Part shown: positions 22,065 through 60,632 of the stretch, piece by piece
Numbering within the stretch: position 1 is the stretch's first letter
Layout of the letters: every line of letters starts with the position of its first letter
NCBI RefSeq assembly: GCF_000424985.1
Contig: NZ_AUKX01000010.1
Coordinates: forward strand, 1-64,000
Reading direction: 5' to 3'
Source: Arenibacter latericius DSM 15913
GTDB taxonomy: Bacteria > Bacteroidota > Bacteroidia > Flavobacteriales > Flavobacteriaceae
Length of the DNA stretch: 64,000 nucleotides
Translations under genes and position numbers: made by a program
Notes under the pieces: model-generated
What the model saw: the letters and a program-made list of their open reading frames with translations, nothing else
Database searches by the model: none
What the model was told of the DNA's origin: nothing

Positions 22065-22090
22065 ATTCTAAATTTTATAATTATTATATT

Positions 22091-25155: not shown

Positions 25156-25173
25156 TGTTTAATCATTTAAGCA
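25156..25173. promoter_or_regulatory. possible LacI-family operator before susC
   Basis: TGTTTAATCATTTAAGCA is an imperfect palindrome that resembles the one right in front of lacI (26216-26237) at about 12 of 18 core positions. It lies between the lacI stop codon and the susC start. Confidence 0.4.
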
Positions 25174-25185
25174 AAAAGATAAAAA

Positions 25186-26214: not shown

Positions 26215-26215
26215 A

Positions 26216-26237
26216 ATTGCTTTAACGATTAAGCAAT
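26216..26237. promoter_or_regulatory. palindromic operator candidate upstream of lacI
   Basis: Arms ATTGCTT and AAGCAAT flank an 8-nt centre, TAACGATT, which contains the central CG usual in LacI-type operators. It lies one base upstream of the lacI start codon and suggests autoregulation. Confidence 0.5.
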
Positions 26238-26504
26238 GTTATTAATTAAATTATTATAATCAAAATAATAATTGATTTTAATTATCAATATGATAGTTTT
26301 AGAGCGCAAACATCCCTTTATCTCATTTAAACTATTCTAAAACTTTCAATATGATATTAGTAACACTCCATCTATTACTACTAATTAATACACAAGTAGT
26401 TTGAAAAAATATTCCATTTTGGATTAAAATAGATGCTAATGCACTCTTCCTGATTATGCCCTTTTATATGTAACCTATCCACCATACATTTTATATTGAG
26501 AGAT

Positions 26505-29683: not shown

Positions 29684-29722
29684 TGATTAGGGTATGTTAT
29701 AGTTGGTTTTGACAATTTGGAA

Positions 29723-30658
29723 TTAATATATACTCATCTTATCGCTAATTTGAAAATATCTTTTTTTCAATTCTTCTACTTCTATGGTCGAAAATGGATA
29801 TATGGGAGGAGCAAAATGTGCTTGGCAAAGTCCCGCAAAGGAAAGAGTTGTTTTCAATCCCTTTAAATAACTTGATTTATAACCACCCAACTGATATATA
29901 TTTTTACTGATTTCCATTACAATTGCTTGAAGACTTTTTATCATTTCAAAATCATTCCTAATGGCAGCTTCATACAAGTCCACGTACAGCCTAGGAAACA
30001 CATTTGCACCACCACAAACGCCTCCATGGCCACCCATTAATACGGTCTCCACCATCATTTCTTCTGGACCTACCATAAGCACAAAATCTTCTTGATCTTT
30101 AAAGAAATGGCACAATGATTGAAAATAAACAGAATGTGCTGAACTGTCCTTTAACCCAATGATACGTTCGTGTGAAGAAAGCCTAATTGCAGTATCCAAT
30201 TCTATATTAAGTTTGGTATGAGAAGGCATATTGTACAGGAACATGGGCAAGGATATTGAATCTGCTAACTGGTTAAAATAAGTGTACATTTCCTGCTGGT
30301 CAATATTCATATAGAATGGAGGCGCCGCAACTACTGCATACGCCCCAGCTTTTGCGGAATAATTAGCCAATTGAATACTTTCTTCTAAAGAAACATCCGT
30401 GATTCCAACTAAAACTGGGATCCTTCCAGCTACTATATCGCAGGTCGCACTTATTAACTCCTTACGGATTTTATAACTCAGTCCTGAAAACTCCCCTGTA
30501 GTTCCAAGGATAAATATTCCATGAACGCCCCCTGAAATTAGGTGTTCAATCAGTTTCTTTACACAATCTAAATCTAATGATCCATCAAAATTCAAAGGAG
30601 TTATCATTGGAGGCACTATACCTCTTAAGGGTAAATTATCATTAATTTTTAAGTTCAT
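29723..30658 (-). CDS. DapA/NanA-family aldolase (pyruvate lyase)
   Basis: A 311-residue class I aldolase of the DHDPS/N-acetylneuraminate lyase family. The Schiff-base lysine is K170 in 'IIGLKDSS', the proton-relay tyrosine is Y142 in 'LYNMPS', and the carboxylate-binding loop is 'GTTGE' at residues 52-56. Members cleave or make 2-keto acids with pyruvate as one partner. The C-terminal 'GGYKSSYLKGLKTTLSFAGL' is closer to catabolic lyases than to DapA. With sialidase-fold enzymes and an SSS symporter beside it, a role in cleaving a 2-keto-3-deoxy sugar acid is likely; which acid is not known (see findings). Confidence 0.88.
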   Translation of the reverse strand: MNLKINDNLPLRGIVPPMITPLNFDGSLDLDCVKKLIEHLISGGVHGIFILGTTGEFSGLSYKIRKELISATCDIVAGRIPVLVGITDVSLEESIQLANYSAKAGAYAVVAAPPFYMNIDQQEMYTYFNQLADSISLPMFLYNMPSHTKLNIELDTAIRLSSHERIIGLKDSSAHSVYFQSLCHFFKDQEDFVLMVGPEEMMVETVLMGGHGGVCGGANVFPRLYVDLYEAAIRNDFEMIKSLQAIVMEISKNIYQLGGYKSSYLKGLKTTLSFAGLCQAHFAPPIYPFSTIEVEELKKRYFQISDKMSIY

Positions 30659-30871
30659 TTTATAAATTTAAAAGATTTGTAAGATTTGTAGGTATTTAAC
30701 ATCCTCCACTCTGTTAAAAGCGAATGTACGCTCAGAATTAGATCAGTTCTTATTATTATTTAGACAACAAAATTGTCCACTGACAGTAATGCACGTGATC
30801 TTTCTCATTTATTACAGCAGAGATGAATATCACGCTGAAAACCTGCTAAAATTTAGGCATCCTTATCACTT

Positions 30872-32491
30872 TTATTTAGTTACCTCAGGAAAATCACCAC
30901 ATATCGAAGTATTGATACCTAGAGAATTAAACACGGACGCCTTAAACTTGGCAGCATTAATCGCGCTCTCCTTTGAATCTGCGTAAACCACTTGAATATG
31001 GTTGGCTTTATGTCTCCCCATCATTTGGTTTTTAGAAATTCCCGGCAATACGGCGTGCATAATGGGCCATGCCGGAGTGGTATTCTCCCACCTTCTATTG
31101 GTTTCTTCTTCTGATAAAGACACTACCTCTCCTATTCCTAAGTCGCAGTGAAGCTCGTCTTCTTGTATAAAAATTCTGCTCCATACAATAAAACCAGGCT
31201 TGCTAATCCCTTTAAGACTTCCGCCTCCTTTTTTGAAATACATGGGGGGTTGTCTTTCACTACTTGCACCAGCATAGCCTCCAATAAAATGAGCAGGAGG
31301 AGCAGCTCCAGAAATCAAAAAGACCCATACAAATTCCAATTTTCCATCAACAAGACATTCTTCTCCCCATCGGATATCATGTAGCGTAGTTTCAGGAGAA
31401 AGACCAAGTTCTTTCCAGAGTCTAGTAGTAATCAATGCATCAATTCCAGCGCACTCATCAACTTCATTAAAATGAGGAATAGAGTTTTTGGCATAAAGCT
31501 CTTTATTGGCAGAGTCAAAAACTGGGGGACGGTCTTCATTGTTTAATAAACCTTCTACCAAATCACTGGCAGCTACCAAATCTTTTAAACCTTGTTGATA
31601 TTGAATTCCAATAGTGTCACAACCATATTGGTCAGCAATTCTAATTGCGGCTATGTACATTTTACATTGCTCTAATGTTTGTTCTTTAGTGAGCTCTGTA
31701 TCCGGATTGGTACCCCAGTTGAAACGCATACCTTTATTAAGTAGCCAATTCAATACATCTGTTGCTTCCGAATCGCCCACTTTTAACATTTCTGCATAAA
31801 GTGCAGATTGACTCAAGCGCTCTTTAAATATACCTAATCGATTAAGGAGTTTATCTGGAACAATGGCATTGAACATACCCATGCAACCTTCATCGAAAAT
31901 TCCCATGATTGATTTCCCATGAAAAAACTCAGTTGCAAACCGCTCAGACTTCTCCTTTATATCACCATTAATTTTTAGAGTTTCAAAGGAGGTAACATGA
32001 GAGTCATCATGGCTAATCGTTCCCGTTTTTAGCCATTCATGCAATTTTGTTTTAAAATATTCATCCTTAAAATCGTGACTCCACAGCGTGCTATATTCCA
32101 CTTCTGCTTTAGTTAAAGATCCATTTAAGTTTAGCATTCCCACTAAACCAGAAGATAACCCTTCCCAATTGGCCAAAGTCAATATTGGACCTTTATGGGT
32201 CATTAATCCTGGTAAAACATGATGAGAATACTGCCATACACTTTCAGCAACTATTATTGGAAGATTGGAATCAAGGTTTTTAAAGACCTCCATCCCCATC
32301 TTTTGAGAATCTATAAAACCATGTTGTTTTTCCGAATCAAAAGCATGTCCCCGCTTAAGTTGATAGCCTAAGTCTGACAAGGATGCTTCAAGTTGTTGCT
32401 CCATTATTGTTTGGAATTCCCACCCTACTTGATTGGCATCTAAACGCAAATCTCCGCTAGAAACTAGTAGTATTTTTTTTCGATTATCCAT
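30872..32491 (-). CDS. L-fucose/D-arabinose isomerase-like protein
   Basis: The start at 32491 gives 539 residues; the frame is open 18 codons further but the first residues there are not family-like. It is a divergent member of the L-fucose isomerase superfamily. By eye the three metal ligands are kept: Glu346 ('NEVDECAGIDAL'), Asp372 ('TLHDIRWGEE') and His498 ('GRHKANHIQVV'). The region 'FHGKSIMGIFDEGCMGM' matches the N2 domain of FucI. FucI-type enzymes interconvert L-fucose/L-fuculose and D-arabinose/D-ribulose. It is the promoter-proximal gene of PUL 1, 213 bp before the aldolase, and is divergent from the AraC gene. Confidence 0.72.
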   Translation of the reverse strand: MDNRKKILLVSSGDLRLDANQVGWEFQTIMEQQLEASLSDLGYQLKRGHAFDSEKQHGFIDSQKMGMEVFKNLDSNLPIIVAESVWQYSHHVLPGLMTHKGPILTLANWEGLSSGLVGMLNLNGSLTKAEVEYSTLWSHDFKDEYFKTKLHEWLKTGTISHDDSHVTSFETLKINGDIKEKSERFATEFFHGKSIMGIFDEGCMGMFNAIVPDKLLNRLGIFKERLSQSALYAEMLKVGDSEATDVLNWLLNKGMRFNWGTNPDTELTKEQTLEQCKMYIAAIRIADQYGCDTIGIQYQQGLKDLVAASDLVEGLLNNEDRPPVFDSANKELYAKNSIPHFNEVDECAGIDALITTRLWKELGLSPETTLHDIRWGEECLVDGKLEFVWVFLISGAAPPAHFIGGYAGASSERQPPMYFKKGGGSLKGISKPGFIVWSRIFIQEDELHCDLGIGEVVSLSEEETNRRWENTTPAWPIMHAVLPGISKNQMMGRHKANHIQVVYADSKESAINAAKFKASVFNSLGINTSICGDFPEVTK

Positions 32492-32673
32492 CTTTTTGAT
32501 TTTGAGTTTACTTAGATACACAACAAACTTAGGCGGAATTGCCATTCGTTAATTGTTAGATTTTGCCAATAACTTATACTATCTTATCAAAACAAGATTA
32601 AAATAGCTCTATATATTGTCAATTGAATACAATCACTTACATTATGATAAAATATATACTCAAAATTTTTAAA

Positions 32674-41965: not shown

Positions 41966-43306
41966 TTAATTACTCTCTATCACAGCTCCGTCTTCACGGT
42001 AAAGATCCACCTTACCGTCTAACAATACAGCAATTACTGTCATGTTTTCATCCAACACATGTTCGGGCAACTTAATATACTTTATACCTGGATAATGACT
42101 CCAATATACTTTCCCTATCACCTGATGGGATAGTTTAGTGCCTTCACCAACTACCCAAATACGATTGATATTATTTTTAAGTCCGCGCAAAACTACTTCT
42201 CCGCCTGGATTACCTTTCACGAATAAATACAGAATAGTTTGATCCTTAGACAAGGTGGTAGGCCCATAAAAATGCTCTTTGGGAATACCTGAACGAGTAC
42301 CGTAAATGGCCTCTTTATGCTTATTGGTCCATCTTCCTAATCCTTCTAAAATAGCCACTTGCTCTTCTGGAATTGTTCCATCACCTTTAGGACCTATATC
42401 TAGCAGGAGGTTACCGCCATTACTAATGACATCGGCAAAAGTGCCAATAATCTGGTCCGTAGTCTTATAATTGTGGTCATTTTTTTGATAACCCCAGGAG
42501 TCGTTCATAGTAAGGCACAATTCCCAGAATTTATTCTCTGGCCTCGTAATAGGCATTCCTTGCTCTGGGGTAGCGTAGTCCCCCTGATCATTTAATCGTG
42601 AATTAAGAATGGTATTTGGATTCCTATCTAATAGCATCTGTCGCACTTTTGGTGCCTGCCATTCTTCTGAGCTATGTTCCCAATCCCCATCAAACCAATA
42701 TAAATCTGGATTATAGGTATCAGAAAGTTCTTTTAGTTGCCCCTGATAGTATTTTAAGAATTTGTCCCATCTTTTAGGTTCATCAGCAATTTTGTATCGC
42801 ATAGAATCCCGGGTAAAGTGGGTATAATCAGCATAGGACCAATCTGGCAAAGAATAATAAATCCCCACTTTTAAATTGTTCTTTCTAAGCTCGGAAACAA
42901 AGGGGGTTAGTACATCTTTTTTAGAAGATGCTCCTTTAACCGCATTAAAGTCGCCAAATTTTGTATCCCACAATGCAAATCCATCGTGGTGTTTAGAGGT
43001 GATGACCGAATATTTGGCCCCACTCTTTTTTATAAGATCTACCCAAGCGGTTGGATCATATTTCTTGGCCGTAAATCCCTTAGTTTGTTTTAGGTAATCT
43101 TTATGAGAGATATACCCATTAAAAAAGGACCAAGATTCATCTATACCATTAACGGCATATAACCCCCAGTGGATAAAAATCCCCAATTTGGCATCTTTAA
43201 ACCATTCCATTTTTTCCTCATTTTGGGAAAGGTTTCCTTGGGCTTGTTCTTGGGCAAAATTTGAACTAATGGCCAATAAAAAAATAGAAGTTATCAGTTT
43301 CTTCAT
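41966..43306 (-). CDS. alpha-L-fucosidase, GH29
   Basis: A 446-residue secreted GH29 enzyme with a signal peptide ending 'SSNFAQ'. Family features are 'KLGIFIHWGLYAVNG', 'SKHHDGFALWDTKFGDFNA' and the nucleophile Asp206 in 'DLYWFDGDWEHS'. It uses a retaining mechanism to release terminal L-fucose from oligosaccharides. No carbohydrate-binding module is attached. It follows the GH95 gene by 41 bp. Confidence 0.94.
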   Translation of the reverse strand: MKKLITSIFLLAISSNFAQEQAQGNLSQNEEKMEWFKDAKLGIFIHWGLYAVNGIDESWSFFNGYISHKDYLKQTKGFTAKKYDPTAWVDLIKKSGAKYSVITSKHHDGFALWDTKFGDFNAVKGASSKKDVLTPFVSELRKNNLKVGIYYSLPDWSYADYTHFTRDSMRYKIADEPKRWDKFLKYYQGQLKELSDTYNPDLYWFDGDWEHSSEEWQAPKVRQMLLDRNPNTILNSRLNDQGDYATPEQGMPITRPENKFWELCLTMNDSWGYQKNDHNYKTTDQIIGTFADVISNGGNLLLDIGPKGDGTIPEEQVAILEGLGRWTNKHKEAIYGTRSGIPKEHFYGPTTLSKDQTILYLFVKGNPGGEVVLRGLKNNINRIWVVGEGTKLSHQVIGKVYWSHYPGIKYIKLPEHVLDENMTVIAVLLDGKVDLYREDGAVIESN

Positions 43307-45725: not shown

Positions 45726-47132
45726 TTATTTAATTGTTTTTTCTAATTCCCAATCATCGGTTCTAAATGCAGAAGCGGGTAATCCGGCCGAATTGTAAAG
45801 GTTTGGTATCGCCCCGTTCGTAAAGGCAAATCTAACCGCCTTTGGTTCTTCTACTTTTTTGGATGACACACTTATGTTATTGTCGTTAATTTTAGCCTTC
45901 GCTGGATAAAACACTTTATCTTCTCCTGCGATATAAAACTCAACCAATTCCTTTCCTTTTTTTATCAACCCATTTTCTGCAAAGTCAAAACTAAGCACAA
46001 TTTCCTTTTTCTTTATTTCCATGGACTTATAAACGGGACCTGAATACACCAATTCTTGATTTCCATAGGTTTTTGCTAAAGCCCATTGTGCTAATCGGTA
46101 TCCAACATCTTGTTTGTTAATAGGGTGGATGTTATCTAAATTTCCAATATCATTGGTGACCACCATACCGGTATTAGCTACATTTTGCATGGTATATAAT
46201 TGCGCATCTCGCACATGAGCAGCGTCTGTAGCCTTGGGATCATCATACTTATATGGAGCAATCTGTACAAAATAAAAAGGAAGGTTCTTACCCCATTCCG
46301 CTCTCCACGATTTTATCATTGAACGAAATGATTTATAGTAGGAATCTGGATTAACTCTATTAGATTCTCCTTGATACCATATAAAACCTACAATATTGAA
46401 TTTTGTAATAGGATGAATCATGGCATTATAAGCATAACCAGGATCATTGGGCCACCAGGCAACCTCCCTTAGTTTACTTGCAGCTTTGGTTAATTCCGCA
46501 TCCTCGGTAATCAATTCTTTTTTCATCCAAACTTCTACGGGTGTTCCTCCCCAACTGGAATTAATTAGTCCCACGGGAACCGATAATTCACGATGTAATT
46601 CTCTACCAAAAAAGTATGCTACGGAACTAAAGTTTTGCATAGTCTCTGGTTTACAAACCACCCATTCCCCTCTTAATTGATCTTGCGGGGAGGCTGATAT
46701 TTGTTGTGCTACCTGAAAAAAGCGGATTTCCGGGTAATTGGCATTTTTTATTTCTTCCTCCGCGTTCTCCAATCCTTGTTTGGGCGTCCATTGCATATTA
46801 CTTTGGCCAGACCCCAACCACACTTCACCTATTAAAACATTGCTTATTTCCAGTTTTTCATGACCTTCTACTATTACTTTATAAGCTCCTCCTGCCTCTG
46901 GGGTTGGCAATTGAACGGTCCACACTCCTTGATGGGCTTTAGTGGTTATCTTTTTATTGTTCCAAGTGCCATATACGGTAATCTCCTCACTGGTAGCAGT
47001 AGTCCAGCCCCAAATAGTTACATCAGATTGCTGTTGCAGCACCATATTGTCTGATAATATGGAGGGGAGCCAAATCTCTCCATACATATTAGTGGTAATA
47101 AGCAAAAGCAGTAAACCTAATAACTTTTTCAT
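45726..47132 (-). CDS. sialate O-acetylesterase family carbohydrate esterase
   Basis: A 468-residue secreted enzyme of the SASA (SGNH-type) family. Features are 'PSILSDNMVLQQQSDVTIWGW' (jelly-roll start), nucleophile Ser in 'WLGSGQSNMQW', 'NSSWGGTPVEVWM', 'GFIWYQGESN' and the Asp/His pair in 'DNIHPINKQDVG'. Members remove acetyl groups from sugars; in a fucan locus an acetylated fucose or xylose is the likely target, not sialic acid. It follows the three-domain esterase gene by 43 bp. Confidence 0.88.
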   Translation of the reverse strand: MKKLLGLLLLLITTNMYGEIWLPSILSDNMVLQQQSDVTIWGWTTATSEEITVYGTWNNKKITTKAHQGVWTVQLPTPEAGGAYKVIVEGHEKLEISNVLIGEVWLGSGQSNMQWTPKQGLENAEEEIKNANYPEIRFFQVAQQISASPQDQLRGEWVVCKPETMQNFSSVAYFFGRELHRELSVPVGLINSSWGGTPVEVWMKKELITEDAELTKAASKLREVAWWPNDPGYAYNAMIHPITKFNIVGFIWYQGESNRVNPDSYYKSFRSMIKSWRAEWGKNLPFYFVQIAPYKYDDPKATDAAHVRDAQLYTMQNVANTGMVVTNDIGNLDNIHPINKQDVGYRLAQWALAKTYGNQELVYSGPVYKSMEIKKKEIVLSFDFAENGLIKKGKELVEFYIAGEDKVFYPAKAKINDNNISVSSKKVEEPKAVRFAFTNGAIPNLYNSAGLPASAFRTDDWELEKTIK

Positions 47133-47175: not shown

Positions 47176-49311
47176 TTAATCGATAATTGAATTAAAGCTT
47201 TCACTAATGATTCTCCCCAACACTTTATATCCTTCAGGTAGTAAATGAATTCCATCTTTAGCATATAAATCCGCTCTCAAGAACCCATTATTATCCGAAA
47301 ACTCGTCGATTACATTGTAATAGTAAATCGTTTTTTGATTTCCTAAGTTCTTTATAAGAGAATGAATTTTATTGTATTTTACTCTTCTATCCGTTTTCGG
47401 ATTTAAGCCGGTAGGCAAGGGTCCTAACAGGATGACTTTTGTAGAGGGAGCAAATTTTTCTTTTGCTATCATTAAGATCTTTTGAATCCCTCCTGCGATC
47501 TCTTCCGCTGTATTTTCTCCAAAATTATTTACACCGATCGCCAATACAACAACCTTAGGATTTGCAGCCTCATAGTTCCCATTTTTAATACGGTATAGAA
47601 CGTGTTGGGTCCTATCTCCAGAAATTCCGGCACCGATCCAGTTTAAATCCTTAAAATAAAGTGCTGCGGCTTCCTTTCCTGGAGCATAGGTAACATTGGG
47701 TCTATTTCCACCCCAACCTTGCGTAATGGAGTTCCCAATTAGCAGTAGGTCGGTTTCTTTTGTGGCTTGGCATAGCGAATCAATATCTTTAGCCTGTGCC
47801 CACCAGTCTTTTCCTTCTATCCAACCTGCGGCCGATCTATATTCCGCCGAAGGAGAGGGGATAGCAGCAAAATTTACTTTTTGATTCGTTGCTCTAAGGA
47901 TAAAATCGACTATCGGACTGGGGTTTTCCAAACTATGTGGATGATGTCCAATTCCTTCTTTGTATATGGCTTCTATTACACCCCCATGTGCTTTAATGCC
48001 TTCTTCAAATAGTTTGGTATTTTCTGCCACGGGAACCACCTCATCTGAAGCACCACAAACGTGCATCATAGGATACCCCCCTTTAGCAATAGTTTTTATC
48101 TTATGAATGGGGTTGCCTTTAAAATTGGATATATCCTTATCACTCTTTAAGTAATACACTTTTTTAAATGCTTCCCAATCTGAGGCACTCCCTTTGCCCT
48201 TACCCAACCCACCAGGCCAGCTTTTTCCATCAAGAACGGGAGCATCGGCATATACCGCTGCCACTTTTTCAGGATTCTTCTCCGCCCAATTATAAACGAT
48301 TAATCCACCTCTACTCATCCCCTCCAGCACTACTTTTTTGGGAAGTCCAGCTTGGGTCATTAACTCATAAAAATCATCCCAACGTTTAACCGCTTCGGGA
48401 CCGCCAAACAAATTGGCAACATCATAGTAAGCAATATGAAAACCTCTTTCCAGTAAAGCAATATCCGTTTGAGGTTCATGCCCCCAGAATCTTGCTCTCA
48501 ACACCCAAGGTCTCCCGGCGGCAACTTTTTTAGGTTGTACTACTTTAGAAGGGATTCCCTTATATTCAAAATTGGTTTGTGGGTATCCGTGAAAGTTTAC
48601 GGTTTCATTATTTTTTATATCGTCGGATTCAAAAATAGTTATGGGTTTGCTTTCTTGCAGCATCACAGTTTCATAAAGTCGCTTTGCAATCACTGTAGCC
48701 CCTAATGAGGAAGGGTGCACCATATCTGGTAATAATTGGGGTTGGTCTATAAAAAGTTGATACAGATCCAACACTTCGGATTTGGTCTTGTAGGCAACTG
48801 AACGAGCCTTAGGAATAATTTTATTTTTTATAATTGGATTCCAAATATTAGTAGTGTCGGATGTAAATGCAGGTAATGGCAATAGTATTACTATCCTTAC
48901 TTTATCATTTACTGCTTTAAAACTTGCTATTAAATCGGTATAATCGGATTCGTATTCCTCTAAATAAACCCTGTTTTGAAGTTTACTATCGTTGGTGCCC
49001 AATTTTATAAAAACAATGTCTGGTTTAAATTCCAAGGCATTGGAATAAGCCTCTGTTTCCCAATAGGGTCTATCCCCTTTTTTTAAAAGGGTCCTTCCGC
49101 TTACTCCAAAATTACGAACCTCGTAAGAGTCACCCAATAACTCCTGTAATTGGGCGGGATAGGAATTCTTTTCCCTATTAGCTACCTTAGATCCATAGGT
49201 GATGCTATTTCCTACAGTAGCAATTTTGATTGGCTCTTGAAGCATCGCCCAAGAAGCTTCCACAAATAGGAAAAAACCTAAAACCAATATTACGAGTTTG
49301 TTTTTTCCCAT
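47176..49311 (-). CDS. three-domain esterase: SGNH + alpha/beta hydrolase + SGNH
   Basis: This 711-residue secreted protein holds three separate hydrolase domains. Residues 28-220 form an SGNH domain with Ser36 ('GNSITYG'), 'GTND' at 105-108 and Asp196/His199 ('DMVHPS'). Residues 235-475 are an alpha/beta hydrolase with Ser333 ('GMSRGG'), Asp423 and a His cluster at 456-459. Residues 520-711 are a second SGNH domain with Ser528 ('GNSITQGWGG'), 'IGVNNF' and 'DGIHLLPEG'. All three seem active by motif. The start overlaps the stop of the sulfatase gene (TAATG). It probably removes several kinds of acyl group from the glycan. Confidence 0.85.
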   Translation of the reverse strand: MGKNKLVILVLGFFLFVEASWAMLQEPIKIATVGNSITYGSKVANREKNSYPAQLQELLGDSYEVRNFGVSGRTLLKKGDRPYWETEAYSNALEFKPDIVFIKLGTNDSKLQNRVYLEEYESDYTDLIASFKAVNDKVRIVILLPLPAFTSDTTNIWNPIIKNKIIPKARSVAYKTKSEVLDLYQLFIDQPQLLPDMVHPSSLGATVIAKRLYETVMLQESKPITIFESDDIKNNETVNFHGYPQTNFEYKGIPSKVVQPKKVAAGRPWVLRARFWGHEPQTDIALLERGFHIAYYDVANLFGGPEAVKRWDDFYELMTQAGLPKKVVLEGMSRGGLIVYNWAEKNPEKVAAVYADAPVLDGKSWPGGLGKGKGSASDWEAFKKVYYLKSDKDISNFKGNPIHKIKTIAKGGYPMMHVCGASDEVVPVAENTKLFEEGIKAHGGVIEAIYKEGIGHHPHSLENPSPIVDFILRATNQKVNFAAIPSPSAEYRSAAGWIEGKDWWAQAKDIDSLCQATKETDLLLIGNSITQGWGGNRPNVTYAPGKEAAALYFKDLNWIGAGISGDRTQHVLYRIKNGNYEAANPKVVVLAIGVNNFGENTAEEIAGGIQKILMIAKEKFAPSTKVILLGPLPTGLNPKTDRRVKYNKIHSLIKNLGNQKTIYYYNVIDEFSDNNGFLRADLYAKDGIHLLPEGYKVLGRIISESFNSIID

Positions 49312-50771
49312 TACAATAAATTATAAATAGGCTTTAAATTGAGCTGATCGCCCATCTTTTCTTGAAGCAGTAATAGTTCCTCAAAAAGCTGTTTTATTAA
49401 GGCAGCATTTTCAGGTGCTTTTGCAATATCATTTAATTCCTCAGGATCAGTTTCCAGGTTATAAAGTCGCACTACCTCCGATTTTGGATACACAATAAGT
49501 TTATATCCATCTTTCCTGATCATGCGCTGAGAACCTTTCTCATAAGTACCATAGATAGCGTTATAATTGCCGGTATCTTCCGTTTCCCTTATCAAATTCA
49601 TCAGGCTATTAAATTCTACATAGTCGGGCTTTTCTACCCCTCCCAAATCCCGTGCTGTAGCCATTACATCTTGTAGGTACACATCAGCTTCCACTTTTTT
49701 CCCTTTTGGAATATCTGGTCCAACTACCATTAAGGGAACCCGAATACTATGATCGTACATACTCTGCTTCCCCATAAGGCCATGCTCACCTACGGCCAAT
49801 CCGTGGTCTGAAGTATAAATGATATAGGTATTATCCATTTGACCGTTCCTTTCCAAGGCTTCCAAAATATCCTTTAACTGATCGTCTAAATGGGTGGTAA
49901 TGGCGTAATATTCTTGTCGGTTTACTTTTACCGAATATTCAGTTCTTGGGAATGGCGCTAATTTCTCATCTCGTAGCGTTGGTCCGGCTCCCATGGTTTC
50001 CGCATAGGGATATTGCGGTAGAAAACTATTTGGAACAGCTATATCCTCTAGGGGATACATTTCTACATATTCTTTTGGCGACTGCCTAGGATCGTGTGGC
50101 GCATTAAAGGCGACATACATAAAGAAGGGATTCGTTCTATTAGCCGCGCTATCTAAAAAAGCTACCGCATCTTCCTTTACTAGTTCGCTCCAGTGTTTTC
50201 CTCCTTTCCAATATCCGCCAAATTCCTTTTTCCATGGTTTCCAAACCGTATCATGGACATTTAACGGTCTATTATACCCTTCGGGCGTATCAAAGGGCAT
50301 TCCCCTGAGTACATGCCCCACATGGTTAAAAATGTCCTTTGGTTTTGCATTAACATGCCATTTTCCGGTCATATAGGTATCATAACCAGAAGTCTGCATT
50401 AGTTTAGGCCAAGTTTTTTCGGTTTCTTCGTCCTTGGTATATTGGTCGGAAATCTGTTGTGCTCTCCATATAGAGCGACCGCTAATGATCATTGCCCTAG
50501 AGGCAACACAAATGGCTCCATTCCAACCGCCCATATTGTAAGCATGGGTAAAAGTAGTTCCTTCTTTCACCAACTTATCCATGGTGGGAGTTATAACCTC
50601 TTTATTCCCTAAGGCATGCACGTCCTTAAAACTCTGATCGTCTGAAAAGAGAAAAATGATATTTGGTTTTTTATGCTCCTCCAATTCTGGAGTCACCTCT
50701 TTTTTCCCATCTGGTTTACAGTTGGAAAAGAGGGCACACAGAATAAGCAGTGAGAATATATTCCTTCTCAT
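49311..50771 (-). CDS. S1 family sulfatase, lipoprotein
   Basis: A 486-residue lipoprotein ('LFSNCKPD', Cys 18). The formylglycine site is C88-V-A-S-R92 in 'GAICVASRAMIISG', a C-x-A-x-R variant. 'LFSDDQSFKD' and 'YTSDHGLAVGEHGLMGK' provide metal and leaving-group positions. The overall look ('TPTMDKLVKEGTTFTHAYNMG') is that of sulfatases near the iduronate/fucose-sulfate acting subfamilies. The substrate is inferred from context as a sulfated fucan. It is translationally coupled to the three-domain esterase. Confidence 0.9.
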   Translation of the reverse strand: MRRNIFSLLILCALFSNCKPDGKKEVTPELEEHKKPNIIFLFSDDQSFKDVHALGNKEVITPTMDKLVKEGTTFTHAYNMGGWNGAICVASRAMIISGRSIWRAQQISDQYTKDEETEKTWPKLMQTSGYDTYMTGKWHVNAKPKDIFNHVGHVLRGMPFDTPEGYNRPLNVHDTVWKPWKKEFGGYWKGGKHWSELVKEDAVAFLDSAANRTNPFFMYVAFNAPHDPRQSPKEYVEMYPLEDIAVPNSFLPQYPYAETMGAGPTLRDEKLAPFPRTEYSVKVNRQEYYAITTHLDDQLKDILEALERNGQMDNTYIIYTSDHGLAVGEHGLMGKQSMYDHSIRVPLMVVGPDIPKGKKVEADVYLQDVMATARDLGGVEKPDYVEFNSLMNLIRETEDTGNYNAIYGTYEKGSQRMIRKDGYKLIVYPKSEVVRLYNLETDPEELNDIAKAPENAALIKQLFEELLLLQEKMGDQLNLKPIYNLL

Positions 50772-50890: not shown

Positions 50891-51748
50891 TTATCCTTGG
50901 TAGGCTCTTGCTGTTTGCTTAGAGGTTCCCAATCCTTCAATCCCTAATTCAACCACATCACCTGGTTTTAAGTATTTAGGAGGATTAAATCCTAGTCCAA
51001 CCCCAAACGGAGTACCAGTAGAAATAATATCCCCTGGCAATAGGGTCATAAACTGACTGATATAACTCACTACTTCCTGAATGTTAAAAATAAAGTCGGA
51101 TGTAGAACTATCTTGTACTTTCTCTCCGTTCAACTTTAACCAAAGGTTTAGGTTATTAGGATCTTTAATTTCGTCTTTTGTAGCTATAAAAGGACCAACT
51201 GGAGCAAAGGTGTCACAGCTCTTCCCTTTTACCCACTGACCTTCACGTTCTGTCTGAAATTCTCTTTCGCTATAATCGTTATGCAGCACGTAACCAGCAA
51301 CATGGTCTAGCGCATTTTCTTCTGAAACATAGGAAGCCTTTTTACCGATAACCACCGCTAATTCTACTTCCCAATCTGTTTTCACACTGTTTTTAGGGAT
51401 AATAACGTCATCGTTAGGACCTACTATAGCAGAGGTGGCTTTAAAGAAAAGAACTGGTTCTTTAGGTACTGCCATTCCACTTTCAGCTGCGTGTTTCGCA
51501 TAATTAAGTCCAACACATACAATCTTTGAAGGTCTAACCAAAGGAGCTCCTAAACGAACGCTATCGTCCACTTTAGGGCAGCTACTTTCATTTTCTTCCA
51601 ACCATTTTTTTAATTGCTCTATTCCGTCAGTTCCAAAGAAATCCTCATTGTAATCCCTTCCAAAAGCAGATACGTCTAACCTAGTACCATTTTCCAATTG
51701 CACACCAGGTTTTTCTTTTCCTACCTCTCCAAATCGAATTAATTTCAT
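50891..51748 (-). CDS. FAH family hydrolase, probable 2,4-diketo-3-deoxy-L-fuconate hydrolase
   Basis: A 285-residue fumarylacetoacetate hydrolase-family enzyme: 'IVCVGLNYAKHAAESGM', 'EPVLFFKATSAIVGPND', metal ligands in 'TDWEVELAVVIGKKA' and 'GYVLHNDYSERE', then 'GKSCDTFAPVGPFIAT' and 'ISTGTPFGVGLG'. In the oxidative L-fucose route this family cleaves 2,4-diketo-3-deoxy-L-fuconate to pyruvate and L-lactate. The presence in the same cluster of fuconate dehydratase and two SDR enzymes makes this assignment likely. No signal peptide, so it is cytoplasmic. Confidence 0.87.
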   Translation of the reverse strand: MKLIRFGEVGKEKPGVQLENGTRLDVSAFGRDYNEDFFGTDGIEQLKKWLEENESSCPKVDDSVRLGAPLVRPSKIVCVGLNYAKHAAESGMAVPKEPVLFFKATSAIVGPNDDVIIPKNSVKTDWEVELAVVIGKKASYVSEENALDHVAGYVLHNDYSEREFQTEREGQWVKGKSCDTFAPVGPFIATKDEIKDPNNLNLWLKLNGEKVQDSSTSDFIFNIQEVVSYISQFMTLLPGDIISTGTPFGVGLGFNPPKYLKPGDVVELGIEGLGTSKQTARAYQG

Positions 51749-53503: not shown

Positions 53504-55855
53504 TTAGATTTTTGTGTTTATTATAATTTTCTTTTCCTTTTGATCCCTAATAATGGTAAGGTTTAATTTTCCCATCCAATTATAGGTTTGGTACGCTTTC
53601 ATTAGATCTGCCACCGTATCTATTTGGTGTCCTTCTGCTGCAACAATGACATCTCCTTGCTGTAATTCCGAATTTCCAGCGACGGATTCCACTTCAATGG
53701 ATACTAATAAAACACCGGCGGTCTTATTTAATCCGGATGCCGAGCGTTCTGCCATAGTGGTAATGTTCTTTATTTTAGCACCCAACCAATCGAATATTGC
53801 TTCCTTATCACTGTCCTCTCCAAAAAATAGCTGAGGGTTCTCAGGGGTTTTAGCAAGGGACTTCAATTTATCATTAGTAACTCCAAACTGATCCATCTCA
53901 AAATTCTTGAATCCAATTTCCAATGCAGGAGAACTTTCTTTAACCTTATAATTCCCGGCTTCTGCATCTATGAACTGAGCCTCACCATACCTACTATTGT
54001 TATCAACTCCCTTATTTTGAGCGTATAACAAACTTTCTTGGTCCGGGAAAAGATTATAATCCACCTCCTTACCCCAAGCATCCAAACGAATATCCTTATG
54101 CTGTGTAAAAACGATATTATGCTTAAAAACATCTTCACTGTTCTTAAACCATACGTGAGGATGAAATCCGTTATTCAACATGATATTATTTTCTACGGTG
54201 CGATAAAATCCTTCCCGTAATTTGATACCTCCGTTTAAACAGAGATTGTTATAGATATGATAATTGGAAGAACCGTCATCCAAGTCTATATCCCATCCAT
54301 GATCACAGCGGAATCTATTATTTCTAATAATCGTAGTCTTGATGGCATCCCATTTAGGCATCTCTGGATTATCGGTTACAATCTGATTCATCGTATTCCG
54401 ATTTGGGTGCCAAAAGCGGTCTCTGCCCCAAGAATTAAATGCCCCGTGATCTCCAGATTCCAGTACAGTATTAAAAACATCGTTGTACTCAAGTATATGT
54501 CCGCCCCAAGTACCGTCCCCAATATTTATCCCCGCTCTAGGCACATCATAAATACTGTTATGGCTTACGGTTATATCCATCGCCATGGCAATTTGCACAC
54601 CTGCCGTTTGCTTTTCTACTCTTCCCGTACGATGAATTAAATTATTATCTACAACAGAGTTACTAGGATAGGTATTGTTTTTTGGCCCTCTAACAGAGTC
54701 CATTTCTGCTACGGGAACAAATTCACCATACTGAAAGGATGGGGACCGTACTGCTCCGGGGCTTCCTACAAAACTAATACCCGATGCTCCCACGTTATGA
54801 ATATGGTTTTCGGATAGGGTTACCTCCCTATTATAATTACTTACAAAGATGGCATTACCCCCTAGGTTGGTCAGTTCACAATTCTGTAAGCTTACATTGT
54901 ATGTTCCTTCCAAGAAGATCGCTCCTCCTCTGTAGATGGTCCAATCGCTTCTTAGCAAAGGCTCATATTCCTCCATAATAGTACGTTGAGCATGTTCAAA
55001 GCGAATTCCACTTATTCCAATATCACGCACCGGATTTTCCTCAACGCCCACTATCTCTAGTAAGTGCTTTTGTTGAACCCCTTCTATTATGGCATTCGTA
55101 ATATCTACTCCTTCTTTAGGCCAGTAAAATAACTTGTAATCCTCATCGAAGAACCACTCTCCTGGAGCGTCCAATTCTTCAAATACATTCTCTACCATAC
55201 GATACCTATTATGCATATCTGAAGGACGGTTATTCTGATGTCCGCCAGACAATATAAGTTCGCCATTTTCATGGATCCCGGTAGAAATGTAATGGAATCC
55301 TCCCCATTCCCCACTATGCATAGCATGGATTATTGCTCCTTCGGGATTGGACCAAGTTTTAACTATTTCGGGGGATATAGCATCGGCAGCATGACCTTGC
55401 CAGTGCCCTCCATTCTCATTATAATTGGGGTAACGAGCCAATATTTGCTGTTTTCCATCCACAAAAAGCTGATCAAAAATATCCTCTTTTTGTAATTGTG
55501 CTACCCAGATATTCTCGTTATACTTTTCCCATTTAGGGGTAAGCAGTTTGGATCCTTTAATTATAGTCTTATCTGCACCTTTGCCAACTATTTTTAAAGG
55601 TCCATGTTCTGGTTTAATCCTAATTGGGGAACTTAACCGATGCTCCCCTTCCATTAGGTGAATTGTGAAAGAACCTTGCTCCCCTTCGTTTCTCAATTGA
55701 ACAACGGTATTAAGTCCCTCTTCAATAGTATTAAAAACCAGTTCTCCATTTTTAGATTCACCACCATTGGCAGATATATAAATATCGGATACCGATGGGG
55801 AACAGCCTATTAAGCATAAGGCTATCATTAAAATAAATGGCACTATTTTTTTCAT
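53504..55855 (-). CDS. right-handed beta-helix hydrolase (probable GH141) with C-terminal PDZ domain
   Basis: A 783-residue lipoprotein ('LCLIGCSPS'). From about residue 24 to 640 it is a long right-handed parallel beta-helix ('VVDNNLIHRTG', 'ITVSHNSIYDVPRAGINIGDG', 'TIIRNNRFRCDHG', split). Motifs such as 'LFVDGKQQILARYPNYN' and 'ESGDHGAFNSWGRDRFW' resemble GH141, a family with alpha-L-fucosidase and xylanase members often found in fucoidan loci. The last 80 residues form a PDZ domain ('KTAGVLLVSIEVESVA', 'LQQGDVIVAAEGH'). Family assignment is by resemblance only. Confidence 0.68.
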   Translation of the reverse strand: MKKIVPFILMIALCLIGCSPSVSDIYISANGGESKNGELVFNTIEEGLNTVVQLRNEGEQGSFTIHLMEGEHRLSSPIRIKPEHGPLKIVGKGADKTIIKGSKLLTPKWEKYNENIWVAQLQKEDIFDQLFVDGKQQILARYPNYNENGGHWQGHAADAISPEIVKTWSNPEGAIIHAMHSGEWGGFHYISTGIHENGELILSGGHQNNRPSDMHNRYRMVENVFEELDAPGEWFFDEDYKLFYWPKEGVDITNAIIEGVQQKHLLEIVGVEENPVRDIGISGIRFEHAQRTIMEEYEPLLRSDWTIYRGGAIFLEGTYNVSLQNCELTNLGGNAIFVSNYNREVTLSENHIHNVGASGISFVGSPGAVRSPSFQYGEFVPVAEMDSVRGPKNNTYPSNSVVDNNLIHRTGRVEKQTAGVQIAMAMDITVSHNSIYDVPRAGINIGDGTWGGHILEYNDVFNTVLESGDHGAFNSWGRDRFWHPNRNTMNQIVTDNPEMPKWDAIKTTIIRNNRFRCDHGWDIDLDDGSSNYHIYNNLCLNGGIKLREGFYRTVENNIMLNNGFHPHVWFKNSEDVFKHNIVFTQHKDIRLDAWGKEVDYNLFPDQESLLYAQNKGVDNNSRYGEAQFIDAEAGNYKVKESSPALEIGFKNFEMDQFGVTNDKLKSLAKTPENPQLFFGEDSDKEAIFDWLGAKIKNITTMAERSASGLNKTAGVLLVSIEVESVAGNSELQQGDVIVAAEGHQIDTVADLMKAYQTYNWMGKLNLTIIRDQKEKKIIINTKI

Positions 55856-56065: not shown

Positions 56066-58309
56066 TCAGTCTACCAAAAAATCGACCTCAGCGATTGCTG
56101 CAACTTTACCGCCACCTGCAATTTCTTTAGACTCCACTCTGATATATCTTGTGGTAATGGCAGATTTAAAGTCATGCTTTCTTGTCACCGGATCATTTAT
56201 CAGGTTTCCAAATTCAAAATCTTCTACCGCTTTCCAAGATTTTCCATCAGCACTAGATAGTATTCTACCCTGCTGAATCATTCCTTCCGAAGACACAGTT
56301 TGTGGAGTATAAGTAAACCCTTTAATAGTATACTCTTGTCCTAGATCTATATTGATATAATGTGGAGCTCCTTTATCTCCAGATTTCCAGAAAGTAGCGG
56401 GATTCCCATCAAAAGCCTTTTCTGCTGTTTGATCTCCTGTGTGGCTGTCTGCCCCCAATGATTTCCAATCCTTTTTAATTATGCCAAACTCTGTACTGGT
56501 TACGCTTCCCATTTGATCCTTTATTTGGGATACCGCGTTTATCTCTCCCGAAGGGAACATAAAGCTTTCGGTATAAATAGGGGAATCTGCTGTTGGAGTA
56601 GATCCATCCTTGGTATACCTAATTGTATACTCACCATTTAAATTCCCACTAATATCCTGACCGTGAGGTTTCCATCCAAAATCTTCCTTTTTAGGAGCAA
56701 TTGTCACCATTCCATCAACATTTCTTTCTATAGTAAGTTGCGGAGGGCGCGTATTATAATAATAGGCACCAGCAAAAGAAATTGCAGGATACCATCTAGA
56801 TTGCGTTAGCCTTACCCTTAGCTTATTAGTAGTTACTTCCTGGAATCTTAAAATTCTCTTATACCCAATATTAGTAGATACCGCTATTTCTTTCCACTCA
56901 TTATCTATCCAAGCATCCAAAGCATGTTTTTCTACTCTTTCTCCATGGGTAGCAATCGCTTCTTGCAGCACAAATCTATTAAGGGTAATCGGATTTTTTG
57001 TGCTTATGATTATTTCACTATTCTCCTTATCGAACACCTCAAAACTTTCCGTATTCGCATCCAAGATATTATTAGGGCCATCTGAACCGTCCAATAAATT
57101 ATTGGTATAGGTTTCTTTTATTCGTTGCCCTACCTCTTTTAATACTCTAACATCTTCCGGAGAAAATTTCCCTTCCCTATTTGGGGGAATATTTAGTAGG
57201 AAGGTAGAATTGCCACCTACTGATCTCTCGTAAATATCAAAAACATCGTCTGTACTACGCACCTTCTGATCGGTATCGTCCCTATAAAACCAGCCTTCTC
57301 TTATAGAAGTATTGATTTCTGCTTGTTGATAATGCAAAAACTTAGCGTTATAGAGTTTTTCACGACTTCCTATATCTTCAGCAGTTATATCATCAAATCT
57401 GTTTAGGTTTGCTGGATCCTCCAGGTACGGAATAACATTCCACTCGGTATCTCTAGTATCTCCTGCCTCATTACCACACCAACGAATATCCTCTTTTCCG
57501 AAAATTACCGTTTCTGGCGCCAATGTTCTTATCAATTCTTTCCAAGCTAGGTAATTATAGGTCTGTCCTCCCTTGCGTTTCGGGTGAGCACCGTCAAACC
57601 ATACTTCGTGTATTGGACCGTATTCGGTTAATAGTTCAAAAAGCTGATTTAAGAAATACTCGTTATAATCATCAACCTTAAAAGTAAAAGTGGTCTTATT
57701 TTCAAAAGGCCTACCTTCTACTGGTCTTGGAATGGTGCGTTCTGTATATTCACTTAAGTTTCCATAAAGTCCTTCCTCATTTTCTATCTGATACAGGTCT
57801 GCTGGAGACAAATACACCCCTAATTTAAGACCGTACTTTTTACATGATTCTGAAAGTTCCCTTAACACATCACCCTTACCATCTTTAAAAGGAGTAGACA
57901 TTATCCCGTGATCGGTATACCTACTTTGCCAAAGCACAAATCCGTCGTGATGCTTTACTGTAAGGATTACCTTTTTCATTCCGGCATCGCTCATGGCCTT
58001 AACCCATTGATCTGTGTCCAAATTTTTAAGATCGAATATCTTGGGATCCTCCATTCCATTCCCCCATTCCATTCTAGTAAAAGTGTTTGGGCCAAAATGG
58101 ATAAACGCAATAAATTCGTTTTTTAAGGCCTCGTACTGGTTAGGCGTAGGAACTACATGCGCCGCTTTTAAAATAATGGAATCCTTGGTATCTGTATCCT
58201 TCACAGGAATAGTACTGGAAACTGGCATTATCAAAGCATCGAACTTTGGTTTTTGAGCACAAGCCGATAAAAAAACTGCTATGGCTAAAAATTGAAATAT
58301 TTTATTCAT
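56066..58309 (-). CDS. alpha-L-fucosidase GH29 with chitobiase-like and F5/8 (CBM32-like) modules
   Basis: A 747-residue lipoprotein (lipobox 'VFLSACAQ', Cys 17). The GH29 barrel (about 55-410) has 'NEFIAFIHFGPNTFTRMEWG', 'VKHHDGFVLWQSRYTDH' and nucleophile Asp239 in 'IHEVWFDGAHPKRKGG'. A small domain of the chitobiase C-terminal type follows ('TIRYTKDGSTPTADSPIYTE', about 560-610). At the C-terminus is a discoidin F5/8/CBM32-type domain ('AFDGNPATFWKS', 'HYINIDLGQEYTIKGFTYTP') that binds sugars. It differs from the simple GH29 at 41966 and likely has another linkage preference. Confidence 0.93.
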   Translation of the reverse strand: MNKIFQFLAIAVFLSACAQKPKFDALIMPVSSTIPVKDTDTKDSIILKAAHVVPTPNQYEALKNEFIAFIHFGPNTFTRMEWGNGMEDPKIFDLKNLDTDQWVKAMSDAGMKKVILTVKHHDGFVLWQSRYTDHGIMSTPFKDGKGDVLRELSESCKKYGLKLGVYLSPADLYQIENEEGLYGNLSEYTERTIPRPVEGRPFENKTTFTFKVDDYNEYFLNQLFELLTEYGPIHEVWFDGAHPKRKGGQTYNYLAWKELIRTLAPETVIFGKEDIRWCGNEAGDTRDTEWNVIPYLEDPANLNRFDDITAEDIGSREKLYNAKFLHYQQAEINTSIREGWFYRDDTDQKVRSTDDVFDIYERSVGGNSTFLLNIPPNREGKFSPEDVRVLKEVGQRIKETYTNNLLDGSDGPNNILDANTESFEVFDKENSEIIISTKNPITLNRFVLQEAIATHGERVEKHALDAWIDNEWKEIAVSTNIGYKRILRFQEVTTNKLRVRLTQSRWYPAISFAGAYYYNTRPPQLTIERNVDGMVTIAPKKEDFGWKPHGQDISGNLNGEYTIRYTKDGSTPTADSPIYTESFMFPSGEINAVSQIKDQMGSVTSTEFGIIKKDWKSLGADSHTGDQTAEKAFDGNPATFWKSGDKGAPHYINIDLGQEYTIKGFTYTPQTVSSEGMIQQGRILSSADGKSWKAVEDFEFGNLINDPVTRKHDFKSAITTRYIRVESKEIAGGGKVAAIAEVDFLVD

Positions 58310-59306: not shown

Positions 59307-60632
59307 TTACTGCGCTTTTTCCGCCGCATCTTGCTGCCAGATAACACCATTTGGAAAACTATAATCTTCCAAAGATTGCTCTTTCATGGTTATACTATAT
59401 CCTGGCAATGAAGGAGGCATATAAGCTCCGTTCTTAATCACTACTGGGTCGTAGAAATGTTCGTGCAAATGATCTACATATTCAATTATTCTATCCTCAA
59501 GAGTTCCGCTAATCGCAATGAAGTCGATCATAGACAGGTGTTGCACATATTCACACAATCCCACCCCACCAGCGTGTGGACATACAGGAATTTCAAATTT
59601 TGCTGCCATTAAAAGAATGGCCAAAATTTCGTTCACTCCTCCAACTCTACAGCTATCTATCTGGCAGATTCCCAAAGCCTCAGCTTGCATCAACTGCTTA
59701 AAAATCACTCTATTCTGACAGTGCTCACCTGTAGCCACTTTTATAGGATCTACGGCCCTCGCAATTTTAGCGTGACCTAGTATATCATCTGGACTAGTAG
59801 GCTCTTCTATCCACCAGGGATCAAACTTTTTAAGTTTAGCCATATTCTCTATAGCCTCATCTACATCCCATTTCTGATTAGCATCCATCATCAGCCTTAA
59901 ATCTGTACCAATTTCTTCACGGATAATGGCAGCACGGCGCATATCGTCTTGTAGATCGGAACCTACTTTAATTTTCATATGCTTAAATCCGGCTTCTTTC
60001 GCCTCCCTACAGAGACGTCTCATTTTATCATCCGAGTACCCTAACCACCCTGCAGAAGTAGTATAGGCAGGATAACCATTTTTAAGCAAATAGTCTATTC
60101 TTTCTTGCTTGGTAGCCTCTTTTTCTTTTAGAAACTGTAATGCCTCTTCTGGTGTAACAGCATCTGTGATATAGGTGAAATCGATACAGGACACCAGTTC
60201 TTCTGGAGACATATCTGCCAATAATTTCCATAGTGGCTTTTTCTCCATTTTAGCATAAAGATCCCAAACAGCATTTACCACAGCCCCTGTTGCCAAATGA
60301 ATTACTCCTTTTTCTGGCCCCAACCATCTAAGCTGACTATCTCCAGTAATCATCTTCCAGAAAGCACCCATATTCTGGATAAAACTTTCCATAGATTTTC
60401 CTTTTACCAAGGGAGCAAGGGAGTGAATTGCTGCAGCACAAAGCTCATTCCCTCTACCTATAGTAAAGGTTAGCCCATGACCTTCCAATCCATCTGGATG
60501 GTCGGTTTTCAAAATTACATATGCAGCGGAATAATCTGGATCAGGATTCATAGCATCTGAACCATCCAAAGATTTACTAGTTGGAAATCGAACATCTTTC
60601 ACCAAGACATCCGTAATTATTGTTTTACTCAT
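59307..60632 (-). CDS. L-fuconate dehydratase (enolase superfamily)
   Basis: A 441-residue cytoplasmic enzyme of the mandelate racemase subgroup. The start region 'DVLVKDVRFPTSKSLDGSDAMNPDPDYSAAYV' (split) is specific to L-fuconate dehydratases. Active-site residues are visible: Lys in 'HMKIKVGSD', Mg2+ ligands Asp/Glu in 'LMMDANQKWD', 'WWIEEPTSP' and 'VATGEHCQN', and His in 'VCPHAGGVG'. It dehydrates L-fuconate to 2-keto-3-deoxy-L-fuconate. It is the first gene of the fucose operon on the minus strand, 98 bp from the AraC regulator. Confidence 0.94.
   Translation of the reverse strand: MSKTIITDVLVKDVRFPTSKSLDGSDAMNPDPDYSAAYVILKTDHPDGLEGHGLTFTIGRGNELCAAAIHSLAPLVKGKSMESFIQNMGAFWKMITGDSQLRWLGPEKGVIHLATGAVVNAVWDLYAKMEKKPLWKLLADMSPEELVSCIDFTYITDAVTPEEALQFLKEKEATKQERIDYLLKNGYPAYTTSAGWLGYSDDKMRRLCREAKEAGFKHMKIKVGSDLQDDMRRAAIIREEIGTDLRLMMDANQKWDVDEAIENMAKLKKFDPWWIEEPTSPDDILGHAKIARAVDPIKVATGEHCQNRVIFKQLMQAEALGICQIDSCRVGGVNEILAILLMAAKFEIPVCPHAGGVGLCEYVQHLSMIDFIAISGTLEDRIIEYVDHLHEHFYDPVVIKNGAYMPPSLPGYSITMKEQSLEDYSFPNGVIWQQDAAEKAQ

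What the first reader, a model, noticed from the sequence alone, without database searches (positions are those of the whole stretch)
47176..49311. One esterase with three catalytic domains (SGNH, alpha/beta hydrolase, SGNH)
Three hydrolase domains, each with its own visible nucleophile (Ser36, Ser333, Ser528) and Asp/His residues, are fused in one 711-residue secreted protein. Multi-esterase proteins are known in gut Bacteroidota, but this order, in a sulfated fucan locus, suggests stripping of more than one acyl type from one glycan.
Basis: partly seen in the sequence, partly recalled or inferred. Interest (0 to 1): 0.6.

Follow-up and report, generated by a model that had tools for sequence, protein, structure and literature searches.

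The report
Three-esterase enzyme from fucose-glycan locus
A marine bacterium makes one protein that carries three separate ester-cutting enzymes, apparently to strip small chemical caps off fucose-rich seaweed sugars; the same three-part design turns up in many related bacteria, and its middle enzyme belongs to a family without a solved structure.

Summary
Window 47176-49311 (-) encodes one 711-residue protein with three esterase domains: D1, SGNH (residues 23-225); D2, alpha/beta-hydrolase (226-480); D3, SGNH of PAF-acetylhydrolase type (481-711). The nucleophiles are Ser36, Ser333 and Ser528, as stated. The order is not peculiar to this locus: 53 of 97 D2-bearing ORFs classified have it, in marine, soil, lake and gut Bacteroidota. 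D2 and D3 catalytic residues are invariant in 45 full-length rows; the D1 serine is lost in 6 of 77, so D1 looks dispensable.

D2 is the more interesting part. It has no solved sequence relative at E<0.001 and is fused elsewhere to GH29 or GH95 fucosidases, a CE20-like esterase, or other SGNH domains. GH95 genes lie within 10 kb of 6 of 16 D2 genes (0.13 expected). Best reading: a de-O-acylase, probably mostly a deacetylase, that unblocks fucose-containing oligosaccharides for fucosidases and sulfatases. Removal of 'more than one acyl type' is untested. A three-esterase-domain enzyme (Fll4, CE6-CE1-CE1) was published in 2025, so this is a new variant of a known kind.

The parts
47176..49311 (-). 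tri-esterase gene, 711 aa, D1-D2-D3
49246..49311 (-). N-terminal hydrophobic segment, residues 1-22, likely signal peptide (no lipobox seen)
   Evidence: read by eye; model shows helix 2-23
48637..49245 (-). D1, SGNH hydrolase, residues 23-225; Ser36 (49204-49206), Gly69, Asn107, Asp196, His199
   Evidence: (C-terminal half of NCBIfam AxeA1 model, 196 bits)
47872..48636 (-). D2, alpha/beta-hydrolase, residues 226-480; GMSRGG nucleophile Ser333 (48313-48315), Asp423, HHPH His456/457/459
47179..47871 (-). D3, SGNH hydrolase of PAF-acetylhydrolase type, residues 481-711; Ser528 (47728-47730), Gly562/565, Asn595, Asp686, His689
49311..50771 (-). upstream sulfatase gene; its stop overlaps the tri-esterase start by one base
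45726..47132 (-). downstream CE20-like SASA esterase, 468 aa
43348..45714 (-). GH95 enzyme (fucosidase or L-galactosidase)
41966..43306 (-). GH29 alpha-L-fucosidase
56066..58309 (-). GH29 alpha-L-fucosidase with F5/8C domains
50891..51748 (-). FAA hydrolase, best NCBIfam model 2,4-didehydro-3-deoxy-L-rhamnonate hydrolase at 353 bits (cut-off 500)
59307..60632 (-). enolase-superfamily (MR/MLE) protein, probable L-fuconate dehydratase
   Evidence: function inferred from context

Best explanation
An exported three-domain carbohydrate de-O-acylase of a fucose-glycan utilisation locus. Each domain uses a Ser-His-Asp triad: the serine attacks the ester carbonyl, an acyl-enzyme forms, water releases the acid. 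D1 (AxeA1-type) and D3 (PAF-AH-type) most likely remove O-acetyl groups at different positions; D2 removes an ester next to, or on, the L-fucose (or L-galactose) that GH29/GH95 must reach. Joining them lets one protein clear neighbouring ester caps on the same oligosaccharide so that exo-fucosidases and sulfatases can continue. Shown: three domains, intact motifs, conservation, fusion and neighbourhood of D2 with fucosidases. Inferred: that all three are active, acetyl as the main leaving group, the positions, and the cooperation.
For: In 45 full-length three-domain rows (window included) Ser333, Asp423, His456, His457, His459, Ser528, Gly565, Asn595, Asp686 and His689 are invariant. The D2 Ser, Asp and three His are invariant in 78 of 78 D1-D2 rows. 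D1 matches the catalytic half of the acetylxylan esterase model AxeA1 in 45 of 45 members. D3's nearest solved relatives are PAF acetylhydrolases, then a Bacteroides sialate O-acetylesterase. D2 fusions: GH29 (L037, L108, L111, L120), GH95 (L071), SASA (L100). In 199 same-family genomes GH95 (E<1e-100) is in 12 of 15 with D2 against 34 of 184 without (p 1.8e-6), and lies within 10 kb of 6 of 16 D2 genes (window included), 0.13 expected. GH29 (E<=1e-20) is in 15 of 15 against 61 of 184. Fucoidan L-fucose 'may be acetylated' (PMC7699409, passages). The founding CE20 enzyme is a xyloglucan acetylesterase encoded with a GH95 fucosidase (PMC8245568, passages); a CE20-like gene is the neighbour here.
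Against: No activity of any D2-bearing protein was found. D1 has lost its serine in 6 of 77 rows, so D1 is not always a catalyst. In the published three-esterase enzyme Fll4 one of the three domains had no activity on any substrate studied (PMC12247016, conclusion). D2-bearing genomes may simply be richer in sugar-degrading loci, which would inflate the genome-level co-occurrence. 10 of 16 D2 genes had no GH95 within 10 kb, and neighbours of non-marine relatives are mixed. GH95 does not prove a fucoidan: a CE20 enzyme of Flavimarina lies in a glucuronoxylan locus that also holds GH95 (PMC12313940, passages).
Confidence: 0.6

Rival explanations
1. Only D2 and D3 (or only one of them) are catalytic in practice; D1 serves as a structural or glycan-holding domain, a step on the way to loss of function.
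For: D1 serine missing in 6 of 77 and Asn107 changed in 7 of 78 rows, while D2's catalytic residues are kept in 78 of 78 and the D3 serine in 52 of 52, four of these re-fetched copies. One domain of Fll4 was silent.
Against: In the window protein and the eight named Arenibacter relatives L013-L020 the D1 motifs GNSxT, NFG, GTND and DxxHP are complete; 71 of 77 rows, window included, keep the serine.
Confidence: 0.2
2. D2 cleaves something other than O-acetyl: a bulkier acyl ester or a sugar methyl ester, so the protein removes at least two kinds of group.
For: D2 has a different fold from D1 and D3 and no close solved relative. Its best fold matches are S-formylglutathione hydrolases/esterase D and S9 peptidases. 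The Arg after the nucleophile (GMSRGG) recalls the GCSRxG of CE15 glucuronoyl esterases (recalled, not tested).
Against: A shared fold shows no function. D2 sits with acetyl-type esterases, and no source of feruloyl or methyl esters was identified for this locus.
Confidence: 0.3
3. The fusion is mainly a convenience (co-expression of three unrelated esterases) with no joint action on one glycan.
For: D3 is absent from 31 of 78 D1-D2 rows, with 7 changes on the tree, 6 forced by well-supported branches.
Against: D1-D2 occurs with a third SGNH domain of at least two, probably three kinds, at either end, which suggests that the combination is useful. The full-length model packs confidently (pTM 0.91).
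Confidence: 0.2

Closest known systems
Fll4 of Flavimarina sp. Hel_I_48 (CE6-CE1a-CE1b), PMC12247016
   Same: One protein with three carbohydrate-esterase domains (one SGNH, two alpha/beta-type) in a marine flavobacterial sugar locus; described there as the first enzyme with three distinct esterase domains (abstract, passages and conclusion seen).
   Different: CE6 first, two CE1-type domains, an extra central domain, xylan locus, acetyl and feruloyl activity; here SGNH-ABH-SGNH in a fucose locus. No sequence comparison with Fll4 was made.
BoCE6-CE1 and FjCE6-CE1, PMC7110780
   Same: Fused esterases of Bacteroidota; synergy between the fused domains of the B. ovatus enzyme is reported (passages seen).
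   Different: Two domains, xylan.
AxeA1 acetylxylan esterase (NCBIfam NF042968)
   Same: D1 matches its C-terminal SGNH half, model positions 270-457 of 459.
   Different: 196 bits against a cut-off of 700; its N-terminal half is absent and it has no D2 or D3.
Platelet-activating factor acetylhydrolase Ib (1fxw, 1es9, 1wab)
   Same: D3: phmmer 2.6e-22, profile 9.5e-32, TM-score 0.88 on the target.
   Different: Bacterial, probably exported, fused; a PAF substrate is not expected.
CE20, XacXaeA (7kmm), PMC8245568
   Same: Acetylesterase encoded with a GH95 fucosidase; the neighbouring gene 45726-47132 is CE20-like.
   Different: CE20-like is the neighbour, not this protein; a SASA domain is fused to D2 in L100.

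Membership tests
SGNH hydrolase superfamily (D1, D3) | Blocks I Ser, II Gly, III Asn, V Asp-x-x-His | tested here: met
   Pfam PF13472/PF00657 over cut-off; residues S36/G69/N107/D196/H199 and S528/G562 or G565/N595/D686/H689
alpha/beta-hydrolase superfamily (D2) | Fold plus nucleophile elbow GxSxG and downstream acid and His | tested here: met
   Model pLDDT 93.8; VIA Z 20-22 to esterase D-type and S9 chains; Ser333, Asp423, His456/457/459 invariant. Which His is catalytic was not resolved
AxeA1 equivalog NF042968 | Whole-protein score of 700 bits or more | tested here: not met
   196.3 bits, C-terminal half only
Peptidase S9 (PF00326) | Over cut-off, with an S9 catalytic domain and usually a propeller (propeller recalled) | tested here: inconclusive
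   24.3 against 22.6 bits, partial match; no propeller-like part in Pfam or in the model's secondary structure
Three-esterase enzymes of the Fll4 type | CE6-CE1-CE1 order around a central domain | tested here: not met
   Order here is SGNH-ABH-SGNH without a separate central domain (Fll4). CE family models were not available and Fll4's sequence was not compared
CAZy CE1 / CE3 / CE15 for the single domains | Membership by CAZy family models | not testable with these tools
   No CAZy/dbCAN library. Weak profile hits only: D1 to 5b5s (8.9e-6; CE3 recalled), D2 to 6xyc acetyl xylan esterase (0.57; CE1 recalled)
Carbohydrate esterase (function) | Release of acyl groups from a glycan | not testable with these tools
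   Needs an assay

The most novel reading that the evidence does not exclude
D2 founds an unclassified carbohydrate esterase family specific for esters that block L-fucose or L-galactose residues. Bacteroidota have assembled SGNH-ABH-SGNH tri-esterases around it more than once, with the third SGNH domain from different sources (PAF-AH type; a C-terminal SGNH with an extension in other Arenibacter; an N-terminal SGNH in Spirosoma, Runella and Flavobacterium), and have also fused it directly to GH29 and GH95 enzymes.
Probability: 0.35. Interest if true: 0.62.

Novelty: new variant of a known kind. Interest (0 to 1): 0.43.

Why it matters
[quoted passage not shown] The fucoidan searches listed no paper on an enzyme that removes its esters, though only listings were seen. 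A widespread esterase family fused to or beside fucosidases gives concrete, cloneable candidates for that step, and a natural case (different three-esterase fusions around one core) for asking why esterase activities are joined in one chain.

Tried and rejected
Peptidase reading of D2 (S9): not preferred because the Pfam match is partial and barely over cut-off and in the window and its close relatives D2 sits with esterases, sulfatases and fucosidases; not excluded. Recent duplication of D1 and D3: not supported; they match different families and gave no hit to each other at E 1e-3, with only 13-15-bit cross hits in three relatives. Fucan-specific architecture: rejected. Link between presence of D3 and decay of D1 (serine lost in 5 rows with D3, 1 without): not significant, p 0.39. 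One origin of the D1-D2-SGNHb form with D1-D2-D3: D2 of three of its five members lies in the main D2-SGNHb clade (98 and 96 SH-aLRT) and D1 of all five lies outside the D1-D2(-D3) clade (96). This fits separate assembly, but an old D1 lost in the D2-SGNHb line is not excluded. One D2-SGNHb protein (L115) fell outside that clade on a long branch. Both are quick trees without bootstrap. The SGNHb and N-terminal SGNH domains are distantly alike (blastp to 2e-11), and the N-terminal one weakly like D1 (3e-5), so 'three kinds' of third domain is probable, not shown. The C-terminal part of L063 looks like another SGNH by eye, but no Pfam family matched it, so it is not counted. The plasmid search gave 14 records, one with most of the protein (Phocaeicola massiliensis, 47%). 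CE families absent from the fold lists are not excluded. The GH29 list was cut off, so GH29 distances are lower bounds. The AxeA1 paper search found nothing.

Full report
What is there. The ORF at 47176-49311 (-) encodes 711 residues. Pfam gives two SGNH/GDSL stretches and a weak alpha/beta-hydrolase/S9 match between them. D1 (23-225) resembles the C-terminal catalytic half of the acetylxylan esterase model AxeA1 and only distantly any solved SGNH (best 2.5e-8 by profile). D3 (481-711) is clearly of the PAF-acetylhydrolase type (9.5e-32 by profile; Foldseek TM 0.88 on the target). D2 (226-480) has no solved relative at E<0.001 even by profile (best 0.0049), although its predicted fold is an ordinary alpha/beta-hydrolase nearest to esterase D/S-formylglutathione hydrolases and S9 peptidase domains (Z 20-22). 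The codons for the three nucleophiles and their partners were checked. The gene starts on the last base of the upstream sulfatase gene.

Conservation. A scan of genome contigs with D2 gave 288 pattern matches, 256 of them encoding relatives; the best 80 were kept. With loci from the genome search added, 97 D2-bearing ORFs were classified: 53 D1-D2-D3, 33 D1-D2 (some with other extra domains), 11 D2 without D1 or D3. These include the window, four probable re-fetches and two truncated ORFs (L027, L079). In 45 full-length three-domain rows without those re-fetches, the D2 and D3 catalytic residues are invariant while Ser36 of D1 is not. Over 78 D1-D2 rows, D2's Ser, Asp and three His are invariant; D1's serine is replaced in 6 of 77, apparently in three places of the tree, two of them on long branches. 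So D1 can be lost as a catalyst; D2 and D3 showed no loss in these rows.

Distribution. The three-domain form occurs in marine Flavobacteriaceae and also in Phocaeicola, Alistipes, Chitinophagaceae, one Spirosoma and lake MAGs; the five rumen-type rows have D1-D2 without D3 (habitats judged from record titles and general knowledge). It is patchy: D2 in 15 of 199 genomes sampled from the family and in 10 of 395 from the phylum at E<=1e-20. The window's genus is taken to be Arenibacter, as the nearest named relative is Arenibacter certesii at 94-95%. In that genus 12 of 18 genomes carry the full protein. Five others (G580, G583, G590, G591, G596) carry D1-D2 followed by a different SGNH domain with a C-terminal extension, called SGNHb here. 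None of the 18 had both forms among the listed matches; one (G581) had no D2 match. In 8 of 8 named Arenibacter loci (L013-L020) the SASA/CE20-like gene follows directly, and the FAA hydrolase and a sulfatase lie upstream.

D2 as a hub. D2 is fused to GH29 in L037, L108, L111 and L120, to GH95 in a Kiritimatiellales MAG (L071), to a SASA domain in L100, to SGNHb without D1 in six proteins (L105, L106, L115, L116, L118, L123), and D1-D2 carries an N-terminal SGNH in L034, L043 and L046. SGNHb and the N-terminal SGNH gave no hit to D3 at 1e-3; they are distantly alike to each other. So the third SGNH domain of D1-D2 proteins is of at least two, probably three kinds. The window's genome also holds two other double esterases: a D1-like SGNH fused to a SASA domain (697 aa, L010) and a 593-aa protein with two SGNH domains (L011). 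Mixing of esterase modules is thus common in this organism.

Link to fucose. Among 199 same-family genomes GH95 (E<1e-100) occurs in 12 of 15 genomes with D2 and 34 of 184 without (p 1.8e-6; 6e-6 without the window's genome), and lies within 10 kb of 6 of 16 D2 genes where 0.13 were expected. GH29 (E<=1e-20) occurs in 15 of 15 and 61 of 184 (p 2e-7). Counting fusions and both families, 9 of 16 D2 genes have a fucosidase-family domain within 10 kb or in the same protein, a lower bound. Genome-level co-occurrence is confounded by richness in sugar-degrading loci; proximity and fusion are less so. In non-marine relatives 127 adjacent proteins were mixed: GDSL 10, beta-helix 8, GH29 6, sulfatase 5, GH2 5, pectate-lyase-like 5, GH31 3, GH95 2 (first 25 of 109 families shown). 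GH95 also occurs in a glucuronoxylan locus with a CE20 enzyme (PMC12313940, passages). The link is therefore to fucose-bearing plant and algal glycans in general rather than to sulfated fucan alone.

Locus. Around the gene lie two GH29, one GH95, three sulfatases, a phosphodiesterase/sulfatase-like protein, a GH43-like protein, an MFS transporter, two short-chain dehydrogenases, an enolase-superfamily protein, an FAA hydrolase and an FMN-dependent dehydrogenase. These fit the oxidative route from L-fucose to pyruvate and L-lactate (pathway recalled, assigned by family only). Fucoidan L-fucose can be acetylated (PMC7699409, passages), which gives the esterases a natural substrate.

Comparison with print. 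Fll4 (CE6-CE1-CE1) is described as the first enzyme with three distinct esterase domains (PMC12247016; abstract, passages and conclusion); two-domain CE6-CE1 fusions showed synergy (PMC7110780, passages). A CE20 acetylesterase encoded with a GH95 fucosidase is known from Xanthomonas (PMC8245568, passages). The SGNH-ABH-SGNH order and the D2 family did not appear in the listings of the searches aimed at multi-domain esterases or at fucoidan and Arenibacter. Most subscription papers are not held, and CAZy assignments could not be checked.

Verdict. The strongest new point is D2: an alpha/beta-hydrolase without a solved sequence relative, more conserved than D1, and found joined to fucosidases and to different further esterases.

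Noticed in passing
L038, L039, L044, L058, L083, L085 (D1 region): D1 has lost its catalytic serine (for example GNSIT to GNGVT, GNELT, GNGFT), apparently in three places of the tree; GxND is also changed in most of these and in L068 and L072, while D2 stays intact: a pseudo-esterase domain kept in place.
   Followed up: partly
In L121 and L122 it lies between a sulfatase and a SASA-GH27-like fusion, not beside fucosidases in the stretch read.
   Followed up: partly
L071 7872-11105 and 13664-14578 (Kiritimatiellales MAG): D2 fused directly to a GH95 catalytic domain, then a GH29-like gene, then a second, more distant D2-type gene.
   Followed up: partly
window 45726-47132: CE20-like esterase of 468 aa matches 636-644-aa CE20 structures in two pieces, apparently without their inserted ancillary domain.
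   Followed up: no
L010 1465-3558 (own genome C27): Another double esterase: D1-like SGNH fused to a SASA domain, 697 aa; similar proteins in four other genomes of the genus (L124-L127).
   Followed up: partly
L011 1480-3261 (own genome C8): 593-aa protein with two SGNH domains, the second like D3.
   Followed up: no
window 53504-55855: Right-handed beta-helix protein with a C-terminal PDZ domain, seen in 6 of 8 named Arenibacter copies of the locus within the flanks held; function unclear.
   Followed up: no
window 17760-32545: A second locus: a BNR-repeat protein and, by eye only, SusC/SusD-like, sugar kinase, sodium-solute symporter, DapA-family aldolase and a 557-aa sugar-isomerase-like protein that had no Pfam hit at 1e-6.
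   Followed up: no
N-termini of three-domain relatives, e.g. L021, L022, L024: Export signal differs: the window protein has no lipobox, while some relatives show a Cys in a lipobox-like place by eye; a crude pattern hit 2 of 52, one probably false.
   Followed up: no
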